Shown: piece after piece, positions 22,976 to 27,393 of the stretch
Layout: every line of letters begins with the position of its first letter
How positions within the stretch are numbered: position 1 is the first letter of the stretch
Source: Terriglobia bacterium
Lineage (GTDB): Bacteria; Acidobacteriota; Terriglobia; Bryobacterales; Bryobacteraceae
NCBI GenBank assembly: GCA_021324185.1
Contig: JAJPJN010000113.1
Span: forward strand, 1-61,810
DNA: 61,810 nt
Direction of reading: 5' to 3'
The notes under the pieces: model-generated
Database searches by the model: none
The model's input: only the letters and a program-made list of their open reading frames with translations
What the model was told of the DNA's origin: nothing
Program-made: the position numbers and the translations under genes

Positions 22976-24706
22976 TCAATCATAGCCTTTTCGTTTGGCC
23001 GACTGACTGTCTGCATTAGCCGTCCAATATTTATGTAGGCTTTGCGCTTGCAGGAGCACGTAGTTGTGCAGACCCGTAAGAAACTCCCGCTCCTCGCGCG
23101 TGAGCTCGGGACGCCAAAGGTCGACAATGAGCACAATCCGGTCCGCCGCAGTATGGTTCCAGGCCTCGTGCTCATAAAAATCATCAAATACCAGGCATTT
23201 GCCTTCCGTCCACTTGCGCGTTTCCGAACCCACGCGAATGGCGCAATCCCCCTCGGGAACCTGTATTCCCAGATGGCAGCGCAGGCGCATGTTGGTGGGA
23301 CCGCGATGCGCAGCCACATGCGTCTGCGGCGCCATGCGCGAGATATAGATCAGTCCAGCCAATGTGCGCACTGTGTCGTGCGCTTCGACTATCCTCGTTA
23401 TCGTCGGACAACGGCGGCAATTTTCCTCGTCTCTTCTTCCTCGCTCGTAGAGCATGCAAACCTGCCAGGAGCCCGTGCGGCGAATTCTTTCCGATTCGCT
23501 GTGAAAGGCGAGATCGTCGAGAGCAAGAACTTCCTCGCGAATGGCTGGATAGGCTTCTTCAAGGGCCTTCGCGATGGCGAACTCGCTCGCGCGATACCAA
23601 GCCGGGCCGTCCGGCAGAGGATAGACGTTCAGTCGGGCCGGGTTCTTAGTAGCCGTAATATCCTGGAGAAACGTGCTCAACCGGGCGGAGATCGCCTGGC
23701 CCGCACAGATTGCGGTTTTGCCACACGCGCGATCCGCCCAAAGCAGCAGATAAGCGGGATCTGAAGAAAGGAAGTCCGGCGCGCACATGTCCGGCTGCTC
23801 CAGCGCGCGCGCCACTCGCAACCACTCGTGAATCGTGAGCCGCTTGTCCCAGGCGGTGCCCCAGGATCGAAGTCTGCTTGCGCCCTCTTCGGCGAGCCGC
23901 TTCGAATGCGCGCGATTTTCAGTCTGCAGCTCGATCAAGGCTCGCCAGAGGCAGGATTCGGGTAAGTGAGGGAATGCTTGCTCGATTTCTTCGAGCGAGC
24001 GAAGCGCCGTATGCAGATGGCCTGCTCCCACATTGTTCATTGCGGAGCGATATGCCGCAATGAGCTTGGTCTCCTGCTCGCGAGAGAAGTGGAGCTTCTG
24101 CAAAACAGGCGGAACAACGCCGGCATTTTCGTCCAGAAGCTGACGGTGCGCGGTTAGATCCGCCAACCAGTTGCCGGGCAGGGAATCCTTGGCCGCAGTC
24201 TGCTCGGCTTGGTTGGCCATGAGCAATACGAGCAATGCGAACAGTTCCTCTCGAGTGAGTAAATTGTGTGCGCCGGTAAAACGATCCGGCAGACGGGGTG
24301 GCTGGCGCGTTTGGAGGTCAGAGGCAGAAGCTGAGGCGACGATGTCTTGCTTACGGGATGCGGCGAATAGGTACGCCAGCCGTTCGGCGCGTTTTCCGAT
24401 CAGCAGGCGCAGGTCTTCTCGCTGGCTGATCGCCAGCGCAGAATTCCTGTAGTCATCGGTTCCATAGATGCTGTGAAAGAGGCCGCCGAGTTGTATCCAC
24501 ATCGGCTGCTGCCAGGCTCGCAAAATCTCACGCGTGCCCCTGAGGTGAGCAGCAAGCGGGCGCCCGTGCGCATGCGGCAAAGCGCGCGTGATTTCGGTAA
24601 GCGTTCGCTCGATCAGGGATTCATCGGTTTGGGTATCAGCCAGGCGTTCGCTGATGCGGGCACTGATCCGGTTCATTAAACCAGCCATAGCCAAATGGTC
24701 TTTCAA
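22976..24706 (-). CDS. AspH-type aspartyl/asparaginyl beta-hydroxylase with helical N-terminal region
   Basis: A 576-residue protein from a TTG start; ATG at 24688 is the alternative. The C-terminal 130 residues match the Fe(II)/2-oxoglutarate Asp/Asn hydroxylase family closely: H467 in HRGPTN, R476 and H478 in RLRCHLG, H513 in YEHEAW and R523. Spacing equals the metal- and 2OG-binding residues of animal AspH (His679, Arg688, His690, His725, Arg735, from memory). Gly469 sits where other 2OG enzymes have the third, acidic ligand, as in AspH. Residues about 215-310 look TPR-like, also reminiscent of AspH. It is divergent from the Asp/Cys/Gly-repeat peptide, its possible substrate (inference). 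Confidence 0.88.
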   Translation of the reverse strand: MKDHLAMAGLMNRISARISERLADTQTDESLIERTLTEITRALPHAHGRPLAAHLRGTREILRAWQQPMWIQLGGLFHSIYGTDDYRNSALAISQREDLRLLIGKRAERLAYLFAASRKQDIVASASASDLQTRQPPRLPDRFTGAHNLLTREELFALLVLLMANQAEQTAAKDSLPGNWLADLTAHRQLLDENAGVVPPVLQKLHFSREQETKLIAAYRSAMNNVGAGHLHTALRSLEEIEQAFPHLPESCLWRALIELQTENRAHSKRLAEEGASRLRSWGTAWDKRLTIHEWLRVARALEQPDMCAPDFLSSDPAYLLLWADRACGKTAICAGQAISARLSTFLQDITATKNPARLNVYPLPDGPAWYRASEFAIAKALEEAYPAIREEVLALDDLAFHSESERIRRTGSWQVCMLYERGRRDEENCRRCPTITRIVEAHDTVRTLAGLIYISRMAPQTHVAAHRGPTNMRLRCHLGIQVPEGDCAIRVGSETRKWTEGKCLVFDDFYEHEAWNHTAADRIVLIVDLWRPELTREEREFLTGLHNYVLLQAQSLHKYWTANADSQSAKRKGYD

Positions 24707-24741
24707 TTGAAGAATTCCCGTCCATTTAGTAATTTTACGTG

Positions 24742-24770
24742 TTGATATTCGGAAAATCGTGCTCTATTAT
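24742..24770 (+). promoter_or_regulatory. Sigma70-type promoter of the repeat-peptide gene
   Basis: TTGATA (24742-24747), exactly 17 bases, then TATTAT (24765-24770), in a local AT-rich patch between the divergent hydroxylase and peptide genes. A transcript starting near 24777 would have its first ATG at 24796, behind a purine-rich AGGGCAGG. This is one of the best promoter matches seen in the window. Confidence 0.7.
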
Positions 24771-24795
24771 GCTGCCAAGGCTTAGGGCAGGTAGT

Positions 24796-25138
24796 ATGAA
24801 AGTCCCAGAAGTTACCGACCCCCCCCCAAACGATTCCAGTGCCATCTGCTGAGTCGTCTCTTCCAACGCGCTCTCATATCAACACCATCCTGTTCCGTTC
24901 CCTGTTGGGATTTTTTGCATTATTCGGGATTCCGGGCAGCCGGGAACAAGCGGCAAAGCGGCTTGTGCAGGTCTGTGGTAGCCGGGCCTCGTCTTCGACG
25001 GTATTGCTGGGAGTTGCCGAGGCGCAAAGTTGCGGTGATTGTGGCGATGGCGCCGATTGCGGCGATGGGGGGGACGGCGGTGATGGCGGTGATGGAGGCG
25101 ATGGGGATTGCATGTACGAGAGCAAGTGCGAGGAATAA
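24796..25138 (+). CDS. Small Cys/Asp/Gly-triplet peptide; reading frame interrupted at a run of nine C
   Basis: As read, ATG 24796 gives only 18 codons before TGA, because a C9 run (24819-24827) puts the frame off by one. A second open frame, from GTG 24839 with no ribosome site, runs to 25138. With eight C the two join into a 113-residue peptide (MKVPEVTDPPQTIPVPSAES...). Near its middle is a hydrophobic patch (ILFRSLLGFFALFG). The C-terminal part has eight consecutive (C/G)(G/A)D triplets, then GDC and a short tail with one more Cys. Cysteines sit at core positions 1, 4, 10 and 27. The stop directly abuts the next ATG at 25139. It resembles a modified-peptide precursor; no known family is claimed. 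Confidence 0.6.
25031..25111 (+). repeat. In-frame 9-base minisatellite encoding Gly-Gly-Asp triplets
   Basis: Units of the form GGN-GGY-GAY, with TGC in place of the first codon in three units, are repeated without interruption. In protein terms there are eight triplets with Asp in the third position, then Gly-Asp-Cys. Synonymous differences between units (GGC, GGT, GGA, GGG) argue that the protein pattern is kept by selection and not by recent slippage alone. A run of seven G lies inside the repeat. Confidence 0.85.
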
Positions 25139-25939
25139 ATGCGAGTAGGCCGACGCGAATTTCTTTTCGGATCGCTTTCGGGCAGTGTCCTGGCGCAATC
25201 GCTCATGGCGCCTGCCGCGTCAACCCTGACGATGCTAACGCCCGCCGACGGCACGGTATTTGACTCGAGCATATCCACATTCTTCCCGGCCATAGCGGGC
25301 CAACCCAATTTCGCCTCGGAAATCCGTCCTTTTTTGGTGTTGCTCCGGAACAATACTGCCCTCACTGCCAAGGGATACGATGTGCGCTGGATGATCAAGT
25401 CGGACAGCGGCAGCGTCGTGGCCATAGACAACTACTTTGTGCAGAGGCATAGGATGCCTCGCAAGGAGGCGAAAACCATTGAGCCAAGCGTGATCCGTCT
25501 TTTGTCATTCTATGGAAACGTGACGCCGCACGACTCGGCAAGCATGCTGCCGAATTCCTACGGCGTCGGGACAGTGTTGTCGGTCGCTCTGGATGGAGTC
25601 ATTTTCGAGGGCGGCATATTCGTAGGCGCCAATACGAGCCAGGTATTGCAGCGGTATATTGCCACGCGTTACGCCGAGCACGACATAGGGGTGCTTCTGA
25701 GCCGCATGTTTGCCGCGAATGCAAGTACGGACGCGATTGTCAGCAGCCTACAAAATCCGCCCAGTTCATGGACGGCGGACCCACACCACGACAGGGCGGC
25801 TCTCTATAAGGAGGCATTAACCGCCGAGGCCAGCCGACTGCTTGCGGTGTACGACAGACGCGGCCTGCCGGGGTTGCAGGCAAACGTGGCGAGGCGGGTG
25901 AGATTCCCAAAGGAGCCACCCTCCCTGGCACTTTTATAG
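25139..25939 (+). CDS. Tat-exported protein of unknown function, coupled to the repeat peptide
   Basis: A 266-residue protein whose ATG directly follows the peptide stop (TAAATG), so the two are probably translationally coupled. The N terminus MRVGRREFLFGSLSGSVLAQ is a clear twin-arginine signal, implying export after folding, often with a cofactor. The mature part has no motif I recognise. It contains YDVRWMIKSDSGSVVAIDNYF, NSYGVGTVLSVALDGVIFEGG and a helical, charged C-terminal third, and no cysteine. It could be a partner, carrier or processing factor for the peptide (inference from position only). Confidence 0.75.
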   Translation: MRVGRREFLFGSLSGSVLAQSLMAPAASTLTMLTPADGTVFDSSISTFFPAIAGQPNFASEIRPFLVLLRNNTALTAKGYDVRWMIKSDSGSVVAIDNYFVQRHRMPRKEAKTIEPSVIRLLSFYGNVTPHDSASMLPNSYGVGTVLSVALDGVIFEGGIFVGANTSQVLQRYIATRYAEHDIGVLLSRMFAANASTDAIVSSLQNPPSSWTADPHHDRAALYKEALTAEASRLLAVYDRRGLPGLQANVARRVRFPKEPPSLALL

Positions 25940-26009: not shown

Positions 26010-27062
26010 ATGAATACGGTAGTATCTAGACTTCTGAGCCGCAGGCTGCTGCGTGCCGTCATCTCAGCCTTGCTGGCGACAACTTTCACTGTTGCCGGCA
26101 GCGCACAGGGAACCCCGATCGAGGCGTTGTCGCCCCTCCAGACGGTCATGATTCCTGACGTCGTCCGTGGTGGCCTGGGTGGCGAGATCTCGCGAAACGC
26201 CTTGGGCCTGATCGGACTGCGATCGTTAGCCGAGGCAGACGGCATCTGGGCAGTTCTTGTATCTACAACAGTCGGAAACTCCGTCGCGATCGGGAATGTA
26301 GGTGGATTTACGCACGCGTTTGCAGTTGAAAAGGACGTGCGCCAACTCGCCCTGGATCGATCAGGGCACGTTCACCTGCTCCATGGCTACGCGACTGGCG
26401 CGAACTCAGCACGACAGGTTTCCGTGGTGGACACGGAGGGTGCGCCCATTGGCCAGTACACGGTACCCGCAGCGGCGGCGTGGCCCTTCCTCAGCGGCTC
26501 CGGAGTGGTCTGGTACACGGGCCGGGCGCTTGCGACGTCGCTTTATGTCGCGCCTACCGTACAGCAAAACGGCGTTCGAGACATCAACGAGACCGGCGGG
26601 CAACGGACGTGGGTGGGTGCGCTTCCCGACGGCCGCTATTATACGTTCGGGAATGCGTCGGAAACGATCACTATTCACCGCCCGGGCGGGTCGGTTGTTG
26701 CGTCCTACGCCGCGCCGCTTGACAGGGCGTACCAGGCAATCGGGCACGCGGTTCCCAAGCCGCCACCGGGAAGCGATCTCGTCCGAGTTGTCTGGGCCGC
26801 CACCACCTCCAAGGGGCAGCTCTATATCTGCCTCTCCGGGTTGAGCGCGTCCGGGCCAGCATACGTTGCGGTTGTGGATGTGCAAACGGGGGCATTAAGT
26901 AAGGTGATCGCGGCGTCTCTTCCGGCATTTCCCGAGCTTGCCACGCCCACAGAACCGACCGGGACAGTGACACCCGGCTGGGGCGCCGCTGAGGATTGCA
27001 TGGTCATTTTGGATCAGATTAAAGGAGTGGCAGCGATTTACCAGGAGTCGGGAGGGCATTAG
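26010..27062 (+). CDS. Secreted beta-propeller-like protein of unknown function
   Basis: A 350-residue protein. The N terminus has several arginines and a hydrophobic core ending TTFTVAGSAQG, a plausible Sec signal with an Ala-x-Ala-like site. The mature part alternates short strands with turn motifs (LALDRSGHVHLLHGY, VSVVDTEGAPIGQYTVP, WVGALPDGRYYTFG, YICLSGLSASGPAYVAVVDV), which suggests a 6- to 7-bladed propeller of the NHL/TolB sort. It lies 70 bases after the Tat protein and 4 bases before a Cys-rich secreted protein, so probably in the same operon. No catalytic motif is seen. Confidence 0.72.
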   Translation: MNTVVSRLLSRRLLRAVISALLATTFTVAGSAQGTPIEALSPLQTVMIPDVVRGGLGGEISRNALGLIGLRSLAEADGIWAVLVSTTVGNSVAIGNVGGFTHAFAVEKDVRQLALDRSGHVHLLHGYATGANSARQVSVVDTEGAPIGQYTVPAAAAWPFLSGSGVVWYTGRALATSLYVAPTVQQNGVRDINETGGQRTWVGALPDGRYYTFGNASETITIHRPGGSVVASYAAPLDRAYQAIGHAVPKPPPGSDLVRVVWAATTSKGQLYICLSGLSASGPAYVAVVDVQTGALSKVIAASLPAFPELATPTEPTGTVTPGWGAAEDCMVILDQIKGVAAIYQESGGH

Positions 27063-27066
27063 CATT

Positions 27067-27393
27067 ATGCGAAGATTTATACTTGCGGCGCTGGCCGCTG
27101 GGGCATCTGCAACGACAGTCGGCGCCCAATCGTGCCCGATTGTATACAGTGGCTCGTTTTGCGGCCTTGCACCCGGCTTAGCCTATTGCTCGGTTCCTAC
27201 GACAGGCGGCCCGTGGTTTGACAGTGCGTCGCTAACTTTTCAGCCCACCTCAAACTCAGCCAGCGACCCAGGCTCTCAATGCAGTCAGGGGTGTACCGGC
27301 TGTTCTCAATACACCATAACCGTAAGCGGGAAAGACTGTAACGGCATCACTCAAACGGTGAACCACTCGGATTGCTGCGAGCTGGCTCCCTGA
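27067..27393 (+). CDS. Small exported cysteine-rich protein
   Basis: A 108-residue protein. A GGGAGGG ribosome site precedes the ATG by about ten bases. The signal peptide MRRFILAALAAGASATTVGA is cut probably before QSC. The mature chain of about 88 residues has nine cysteines, including the cluster SQCSQGCTGC and a C-terminal DCC. It should be disulfide-rich or metal-binding outside the cytoplasm. No family is recognised. It is the second Cys-rich small protein of this island and a second conceivable hydroxylase target (KDCNG, HSDCC). Confidence 0.72.
   Translation: MRRFILAALAAGASATTVGAQSCPIVYSGSFCGLAPGLAYCSVPTTGGPWFDSASLTFQPTSNSASDPGSQCSQGCTGCSQYTITVSGKDCNGITQTVNHSDCCELAP

What the first reader, a model, noticed from the sequence alone, without database searches (positions are those of the whole stretch)
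22976..24706. Bacterial AspH-like enzyme with all catalytic spacings kept and a TPR-like N terminus
H467, G469, R476, H478, H513 and R523 reproduce the spacing of animal AspH His679, Gly681, Arg688, His690, His725 and Arg735 (from memory), including Gly in place of the acidic ligand. The helical N-terminal half also recalls AspH. Most bacterial relatives are short single-domain proteins, so a 576-residue version next to a Cys/Asp peptide is notable.
Basis: partly seen in the sequence, partly recalled or inferred. Interest (0 to 1): 0.72.

Follow-up and report, generated by a model that had tools for sequence, protein, structure and literature searches.

The report
AspH-like enzyme beside Gly-Asp repeat peptide
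A bacterial cousin of the human enzyme that adds hydroxyl groups to aspartate, fused to a second domain shaped like those of alarmone-degrading enzymes, usually sits next to a gene whose product carries Gly-Gly-Asp repeats, which are therefore its likely target.

Summary
The ORF is real (minus strand, 22976-24706, 576 aa). Its last third is a PF05118 oxygenase close to human AspH (39% identity, VIA Z 26, rmsd 1.7 A over 189 residues), and all six named residues align. That is mostly family-wide: 76 of 103 members compared, window included, share all six. The N terminus is only partly TPR-like: residues 24-194 hold a DUF6817 domain that folds most like the HD domain of SpoT/RelH/MESH1, with His-Ser for His-Asp; only about 200-300 looks TPR-like. 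TPR-AspH fusions are ordinary; DUF6817-AspH fusions are rare. I found ten intact ones, three in the window's class and seven in an actinobacterial order. Nine of ten lie within 1.5 kb of an ORF with a Gly-Asp repeat, against 0 of 121 other PF05118 genes. The repeats sit on carriers without similarity outside the repeat: short Cys-flanked peptides, and the tail of a larger protein whose relatives without the enzyme mostly end in GGGDF-like repeats. Best reading: a dedicated oxygenase that beta-hydroxylates Asp in (GGD)n tracts. The substrate is inferred from gene neighbourhood; chemistry and purpose are untested. A new variant of a known kind, ready for an enzyme assay.

The parts
22976..24706 (-). 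DUF6817 - TPR-like - AspH fusion enzyme, 576 aa
   Evidence: ORF; Pfam PF20680 and PF05118; AF2 model pLDDT 87.3, pTM 0.60
24125..24637 (-). HD-like domain (residues about 24-194; Pfam DUF6817 covers 41-116)
   Evidence: AF2 model of residues 1-200, pLDDT 83.7, pTM 0.80; Foldseek ranks 1-21 all Rel/SpoT/RelA or small alarmone hydrolases, E 5e-3 to 0.17; VIA Z 11.9, rmsd 3.3, 142 residues to RelH 7qod, under the Z of about 13 that the tool asks of helical folds
23801..24109 (-). helical TPR-like part (residues about 200-302)
   Evidence: VIA aligns about 170-548 with the TPR-oxygenase part of human AspH, rmsd 17-18 over both domains; no Pfam TPR hit at E<=1
23063..23635 (-). AspH-type 2OG oxygenase domain (residues 358-548)
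   Evidence: PF05118 E 7.9e-51; 5apa VIA Z 26.0, rmsd 1.7, 189 residues, 39% identity; phmmer E 7.7e-41
24839..25138 (+). Cys-flanked Gly-Asp repeat peptide, 99 aa, likely substrate; start codon uncertain
   Evidence: ORF; counterpart by place and make-up in G225, L025 11565-11792; the two are alike only in the repeat
25031..25111 (+). core CGDCGDGADCGDGGDGGDGGDGGDGDC: 9 Asp, eight of them spaced by exactly 3
   Evidence: lag-3 comparison of G/D codons: 7 identical, 9 synonymous, 1 non-synonymous
25139..25939 (+). companion protein, 266 aa, with GRREFL near the start (twin-arginine-like by eye, no predictor run); follows the peptide without a gap
   Evidence: homologue in G225 between enzyme and peptide, E 8e-8 for the pair, 2.85e-6 among the ORFs compared
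24707..24838 (.). 132-nt divergent intergenic region between enzyme and peptide
   Evidence: ORF coordinates
26010..27393 (+). two further exported-looking ORFs (350 aa; 108 aa with 9 Cys); membership uncertain
   Evidence: no family over a curated cut-off and no similarity to L025 ORFs

Best explanation
The gene encodes a peptide- or protein-modifying Fe(II)/2-oxoglutarate oxygenase of the AspH branch of PF05118. Its C-terminal domain would add a hydroxyl to the beta carbon of Asp residues in (Gly-Gly-Asp)n tracts of the neighbouring gene product; the TPR-like and HD-like parts would hold or select the long repetitive substrate. In the window's class the substrate is a short Cys-flanked peptide made beside a companion protein; in the actinobacterial order it is the C-terminal tail of a larger protein. 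The likely outcome is a chain of closely spaced beta-hydroxy-Asp residues, well suited to bind metal ions. Shown here: domain make-up, kept AspH residues, rare fusion, recurrent link to GD repeats. Inferred: that the repeat is the substrate, that Asp C3 is the site, the role of the HD-like domain, metal binding.
For: Catalytic domain near human AspH, with Ser668, His679, Arg688, His690, His725 and Arg735 equivalents kept. The Arg686/Arg688 pair, which contacts substrate in AspH (PMC6817910 passages), is kept as R474/R476 in 10 of 10 intact fusions, against Arg688 in 78 and Arg686 in 26 of 103 family members. GD-repeat ORF within 1.5 kb of 9 of 10 intact fusions against 0 of 121 other PF05118 ORFs; with 110 of the 121 that have at least 1 kb on both sides, Fisher p about 1e-12. 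In L025 enzyme, companion and peptide form one operon-like run with gaps of 21 and 15 nt. All 8 genomes of the actinobacterial order with the enzyme (7 intact, 1 split at contig ends) have the carrier beside it. Carrier tails beside the enzyme have 7-16 Asp-Gly steps against 0-6 in 17 without it, and 1-6 aromatic residues against 7-10. Tract codons in the window vary mostly synonymously. The fusions form one clade with a single intruder, SH-aLRT 98.
Against: No biochemistry. The carrier family has Asp-containing Gly-rich tails in many genomes without the enzyme: 27 of 35 carrier genomes in that order lack it, among them two with close carriers, G774 and G788. One of 10 fusions (G359) has no GD ORF within about 8.7 kb, and GDGGDG codes are not clustered in its genome. 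G772 has two oxygenase ORFs of this clade without DUF6817, carrier or GD ORF. The Fisher test treats related genomes as independent: seven of the nine cases share one carrier family. The GD threshold was set after the first examples were seen, and one of the ten fusions has only 918 nt on one side. The two short peptides share no similarity outside the repeat, so they may not be homologous. [quoted passage not shown] the actinobacterial tails have no Cys. Lys666, which holds the substrate Asp in human AspH, is Tyr454.
Confidence: 0.57

Rival explanations
1. It is a peptide/protein oxygenase, but the GD repeat is not its substrate: carrier and enzyme are neighbours for another reason, and the repeat is a generic Gly-rich tail.
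For: Gly-rich, Asp-containing tails, mostly GGGDF-like, occur in the 17 compared carriers without the enzyme; G359 has the enzyme without a GD neighbour; most linked carriers are close relatives of one another (79-84% identical to the first row, one 55%).
Against: Peptides in the window's class, without similarity to the carriers outside the repeat, share the dense GD repeat and the same neighbour; in linked carriers the tail is shifted to Asp-Gly steps with fewer aromatics.
Confidence: 0.22
2. It hydroxylates a lipid or small molecule, as LpxO and OlsC of the same Pfam family do.
For: NCBIfam OlsC (113 bits) and LpxO (66 bits) models match.
Against: Both scores are far under the curated cut-offs of 450 and 500 bits; human AspH matches over the same domain with E 7.7e-41 and 39% structural identity; the GD link.
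Confidence: 0.08
3. Two-step enzyme: the AspH domain makes beta-hydroxy-Asp and the HD-like domain oxidises or cleaves it further, as in the two-oxygenase conversion of Asp to aminomalonate.
For: The HD-like domain also resembles PhnZ and TmpB, the latter titled an oxygenase (VIA Z 7.2-7.9); a two-enzyme Asp-to-aminomalonate route exists in a graspetide cluster (PMC13097080 passages).
Against: Alarmone hydrolases match better (Z up to 11.9); the Asp of the HD motif is Ser in all 20 aligned DUF6817 domains, which would cost a metal ligand.
Confidence: 0.07

Closest known systems
[quoted passage not shown]
   Same: Oxygenase domain: Z 26, rmsd 1.7 A, 39% identity over 189 residues; two-His metal site, RXS motif; a TPR-like helical part before it
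   Different: Extra N-terminal HD-like DUF6817 domain; Lys666 replaced by Tyr; a Gly-Asp repeat neighbour (EGF-like proteins in the genome were not searched)
EreI of the pythonamide (proteusin) pathway
   Same: AspH-family protein that adds one oxygen to a ribosomal peptide (PMC9259500 passages)
   Different: Oxygen was placed at the C-terminal Cys or Val of a methylated core, not at Asp repeats; its domain make-up was not examined by me
SmaO/SmaX of a graspetide cluster
   Same: Asp beta-hydroxylation in a ribosomal peptide (PMC13097080 passages)
   Different: Two separate proteins; their enzyme families were not seen by me (original paper not held)
Bacterial TPR-AspH proteins and single-domain PF05118 proteins (LpxO, OlsC and others)
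   Same: Same catalytic family
   Different: No GD-repeat ORF within 1.5 kb of any of the 121 compared; four long TPR members checked (L051, L054, L062, L106) have Val or Ile at the Arg688 position
Rel/SpoT, small alarmone hydrolase and MESH1 HD domains
   Same: Best structural matches of residues 24-200
   Different: His-Asp motif reads His-Ser in all 20 domains aligned

Membership tests
PF05118 (Asp_Arg_Hydrox) | Score over the curated cut-off over the whole domain | tested here: met
   172.4 bits against 22.6, profile 1-157 of 157
AspH-type Fe(II)/2OG oxygenase | Two His metal ligands without an acidic ligand; Arg and Ser for 2OG | tested here: met
   H467, H513, R523, S456 align with His679, His725, Arg735, Ser668
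AspH-type Fe(II)/2OG oxygenase | Hydroxylation of Asp or Asn C3 | not testable with these tools
   needs an enzyme assay
Animal AspH | TPR domain directly before the oxygenase domain | tested here: inconclusive
   about 170-300 aligns with the AspH TPR part within a two-domain rmsd of 17-18 A; no Pfam TPR hit
Animal AspH | Lys666 and Arg688 bind the substrate carboxylate | tested here: inconclusive
   Arg688 kept (R476), Lys666 is Y454
Animal AspH | EGF-like domain substrate, disulfide-closed 10-residue ring | not tested
   the neighbouring peptide is a Cys-flanked GD repeat; its disulfides are unknown and EGF-like proteins elsewhere in the genome were not searched
LpxO / OlsC | Score over the NCBIfam cut-off | tested here: not met
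   66 against 500 and 113 against 450 bits
DUF6817 (PF20680) | Score over the curated cut-off | tested here: met
   76.8 against 25.2 bits
HD-domain alarmone hydrolase (SpoT/RelH/MESH1) | Fold of the HD domain | tested here: inconclusive
   this family fills Foldseek ranks 1-21 and VIA ranks 1-26, but Foldseek E is above 0.001 and Z 11.9 is under the 13 advised for helical folds
HD-domain alarmone hydrolase (SpoT/RelH/MESH1) | His-Asp motif, essential for hydrolysis (PMC10434055 passages) | tested here: not met
   His-Ser in all 20 DUF6817 domains aligned; the equivalence rests on motif order, no residue-level superposition was seen
RiPP precursor | Leader followed by a modified core, cleaved and exported | not tested
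   short ORF with a Cys-flanked repeat core beside the enzyme; modification and cleavage unknown

The most novel reading that the evidence does not exclude
A new class of modified ribosomal products: (Gly-Gly-Asp)n tails and peptides turned by a fused HD-like/AspH enzyme into poly-beta-hydroxyaspartate arrays (perhaps oxidised further towards aminomalonate) that serve as genetically encoded multidentate metal binders, invented on at least two unrelated protein carriers.
Probability: 0.22. Interest if true: 0.85.

Novelty: new variant of a known kind. Interest (0 to 1): 0.6.

Why it matters
PF05118 proteins are frequent in bacteria, and for most of those met here nothing tells the substrate. 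A subfamily marked by a rare domain fusion, with a candidate repeat substrate next door in two distant groups, makes substrate, site and number of hydroxylations directly testable by co-expression in E. coli. It also gives DUF6817 a likely fold and a context, and could reveal a ribosomal route to dense beta-hydroxyaspartate, a residue that I recall as an iron ligand in siderophores.

Tried and rejected
TPR reading of the whole N terminus: rejected. Catalytic spacing as a mark of true AspH: rejected as mostly family-wide. Chance GD ORF: unlikely. Mere DNA repeat: unlikely for the window (9 synonymous, 1 non-synonymous); in L037 and L221 non-synonymous lag-3 changes outnumber synonymous ones (25 to 10, 12 to 8).

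A conserved wider cluster: window ORFs 26010-27062 and 27067-27393 have no counterpart in L025. Homologues of the companion occur in 9 of 299 class genomes, the window's own and G225 included; in the 11 stretches read around the others (L269-L278, L281) no GD-repeat gene stood out; the weaker flags in L274 and L281 look like overlapping frames. Plasmids: 106 records match, none over 80% of the query; the 20 listed match from residue 331 on. Viral contigs: 3 loci, oxygenase part only; carrier none. DUF6817 in print: 0 papers in the held library. AspH with RiPPs: searches gave the papers cited; some searches listed unrelated word matches; PF05118 as a word is in one paper, on giant viruses (listing only).

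Choices and dropped rows: of 110 ORFs found, five were left out of alignment A3 (L107, L112, L115, L116, L156). In one search, duplicates (L279, L280, L247) and ORFs without a carrier tail or with weak matches (L248, L251-L255, second ORFs of L246 and L247) were left out of the list; 8 against 17 remain. In one search, 11 of 121 other ORFs were left out of Fisher's test for short flanks, while all ten fusions were kept. The split G651 enzyme and the two G772 ORFs were counted apart.

Scripts that failed or gave nothing: one search stopped after L025 (that part of its output is used), searches printed no hits (cut pipe, strict filter); done again.

Full report
What is there. The finding gives no strand. 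The ORF is on the minus strand, 22976-24706, 576 codons from a TTG; in-frame Met codons 7 and 11 are alternative starts. Pfam finds two domains: DUF6817 (PF20680) at residues 41-116, E 1.4e-21, and Asp_Arg_Hydrox (PF05118) at 383-533, E 7.9e-51. It is the only PF05118 and the only DUF6817 match in its genome. No call names the organism: 51 TonB-receptor matches point to an outer membrane, and I take the phylum to be Acidobacteriota, as a guess.

The catalytic part. Against solved structures, human AspH is the only clear sequence match (E 7.7e-41, residues 361-543). In the AlphaFold model (pLDDT 87.3, pTM 0.60) residues 358-548 superpose on human AspH 5apa with VIA Z 26.0, rmsd 1.7 A over 189 residues, 39% identity. 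Roles of these human residues, Gly681 apart, were seen in passages of PMC6817910. This does not single the protein out: 76 of 103 PF05118 proteins compared, window included, share all six, and four of the key positions are the same in 103 of 103. The informative positions are those that vary: Arg688 (substrate carboxylate in AspH) is kept in 78 of 103 and Arg686 in 26 of 103, both in 10 of 10 intact fusions; Lys666 is Tyr in 10 of 10.

The N terminus. A separate model of residues 1-200 (pLDDT 83.7, pTM 0.80) matches Rel, SpoT, RelA and small alarmone hydrolases at Foldseek ranks 1-21, with modest E-values of 0.005 to 0.17, and VIA Z up to 11.9 (RelH 7qod, rmsd 3.3, 142 residues). The tool warns that Z under about 13 may be a common arrangement in helical folds; in favour speaks that one family fills ranks 1-26. 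PhnZ and TmpB follow at Z 7.2-7.9. So DUF6817 is probably an HD-superfamily domain. Its motif reads His-Ser in all 20 aligned domains, ten fused and ten free-standing, where the alarmone hydrolases have an essential His-Asp (passages of PMC10434055); hydrolysis of alarmones is therefore unlikely. Residues about 170-300 align with the TPR region of AspH. TPR N termini occur in other relatives as well (each of several TPR models in at most 10 of 106 rows; five examples), so the rare feature is DUF6817.

Who else has the fusion. In 396 genomes of the phylum and 299 of the class, both drawn evenly from larger groups, intact fusions were found only in the window's genome, G225 and G359. Two other genomes of the same genus (G550, G634; 93 and 92% complete) show neither enzyme nor companion protein, which suggests an accessory locus. 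The named-genome scan added two assemblies titled Solirubrobacterales (L034, L035) and a fragment (L037). A search of 232 genomes of the order of L034's genome gave seven intact fusions, those two included, one split at contig ends (G651, the genome of L037) and one with oxygenase domains only (G772); Pfam confirms both domains in the five not seen before. In a tree of 130 oxygenase domains the 13 fused or partial rows plus the Acidisphaera row L036, which has TPRs instead of DUF6817, form one set, SH-aLRT 98 (quick method, no bootstrap).

The neighbour. The companion is homologous to window 25139-25939 (E 8e-8 for the pair), which itself starts right after the window's peptide. The two peptides are alike in the repeat only, so they match by place and make-up, not by proven descent. 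In the actinobacterial order a 219-348 aa protein ending in a GD repeat lies tail to tail with the enzyme, from overlapping by 4 nt to 79 nt away; outside the repeat it shows no similarity to the peptides (three carriers compared, best E 0.20). Counted with one threshold (25-residue stretch with at least 5 Asp, 8 Gly and 16 Gly+Asp, set after the first examples were seen), a GD ORF lies within 1.5 kb of 9 of 10 intact fusions and of 0 of 121 other PF05118 ORFs; with the 110 that have at least 1 kb on both sides, Fisher p about 1e-12. The p-value overstates the case, since seven of the nine share one carrier family; the fair count is two kinds of carrier in two distant groups.

A within-family control. 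The carrier occurs in 35 of 232 genomes of that order, 8 of them with the enzyme beside it (one of the eight is the split G651). Tails without the enzyme mostly end in GGGDF-like repeats. Tails beside the enzyme have 7-16 Asp-Gly steps against 0-6, and 1-6 aromatic residues against 7-10, in 8 against 17 tails (15 of the 17 from that order, two from Streptomyces and Nonomuraea). Two close carriers without a detected enzyme (G788, G774) have in-between tails (4 and 6 Asp-Gly steps). This fits a tail reshaped for the enzyme, but shared ancestry of the 8 is a confounder. Against the reading stand G359, which has the enzyme but no GD neighbour and no clustered GD codes, and the mere existence of Asp-containing tails without the enzyme.

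Is the repeat selected as protein? In the window tract, lag-3 comparisons of Gly/Asp codons give 7 identical, 9 synonymous and 1 non-synonymous, so the repeat seems kept at the protein level. The picture is weaker elsewhere; in L037 and L221 non-synonymous changes outnumber synonymous ones, perhaps because the repeat period differs there.

How it most likely works. Established for AspH: hydroxylation of Asp/Asn with Fe(II) and 2OG. Seen here: kept active site, rare fusion, recurrent GD neighbour. Inferred: Asp beta-hydroxylation along (GGD)n, with the TPR-like and HD-like parts as substrate grip. Human AspH needs a disulfide-closed ring (passages of PMC9293771). The short peptides have Cys around the repeat, the actinobacterial tails do not, so recognition must differ. 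Dense beta-hydroxy-Asp would suit metal binding (recalled from siderophore chemistry, not tested).

Known and new. AspH-family enzymes that modify ribosomal peptides are known: EreI (PMC9259500 passages), and a predicted one, savH, in a biarylitide cluster, for which the passage I saw reports only the cross-linked product without further modification (PMC13417212). Asp beta-hydroxylation and its onward conversion to aminomalonate are known in a graspetide cluster (PMC13097080 passages; the original paper is not held), and Asp hydroxylation by a different system in nitrilobacillins (PMC13060819 passages). No held paper names DUF6817, and the searches listed nothing on GD repeats with such an enzyme; the library misses most subscription journals. 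I therefore rate it a new variant of a known kind.

Noticed in passing
L276 171-563 and 2775-3278; L273 8526-8936: Homologues of the companion protein in other genomes of the class lie beside 130-170 aa ORFs that share a start (MAR.RKW..) and, in L276, end in short Cys-rich stretches; they look like precursors of other small secreted peptides without the AspH enzyme.
   Followed up: partly
24796-24838: A run of nine C lies just upstream of the GTG taken as start of the GD peptide; an ATG at 24796 opens a short ORF in another frame. The true start of the peptide is unsettled.
   Followed up: no
27067-27393: 108-aa exported-looking protein with 9 Cys and no family match in Pfam (E<=1) or NCBIfam (E<=0.1).
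   Followed up: no
L036 9368-10723 (Acidisphaera): Member of the same oxygenase clade with a TPR N terminus in place of DUF6817 and no GD neighbour: domain swap or loss.
   Followed up: partly
L047, L057, L066, L091: Actinobacterial loci with two different PF05118 genes within 5 kb of each other.
   Followed up: no
L051, L054, L062, L106 (TPR shown); also L045, L053, L060, L063, L065, L068, L086: Proteins of the family with Val, Ile or Ala at the Arg688 position, so their substrate may not be Asp or Asn.
   Followed up: no
L034 11707-12486 and relatives: Actinobacterial carrier family with a PCFFDPRHGPS motif (in the eight aligned) and often a GGGDF-repeat tail; the two members scanned have no Pfam family over its cut-off.
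   Followed up: partly
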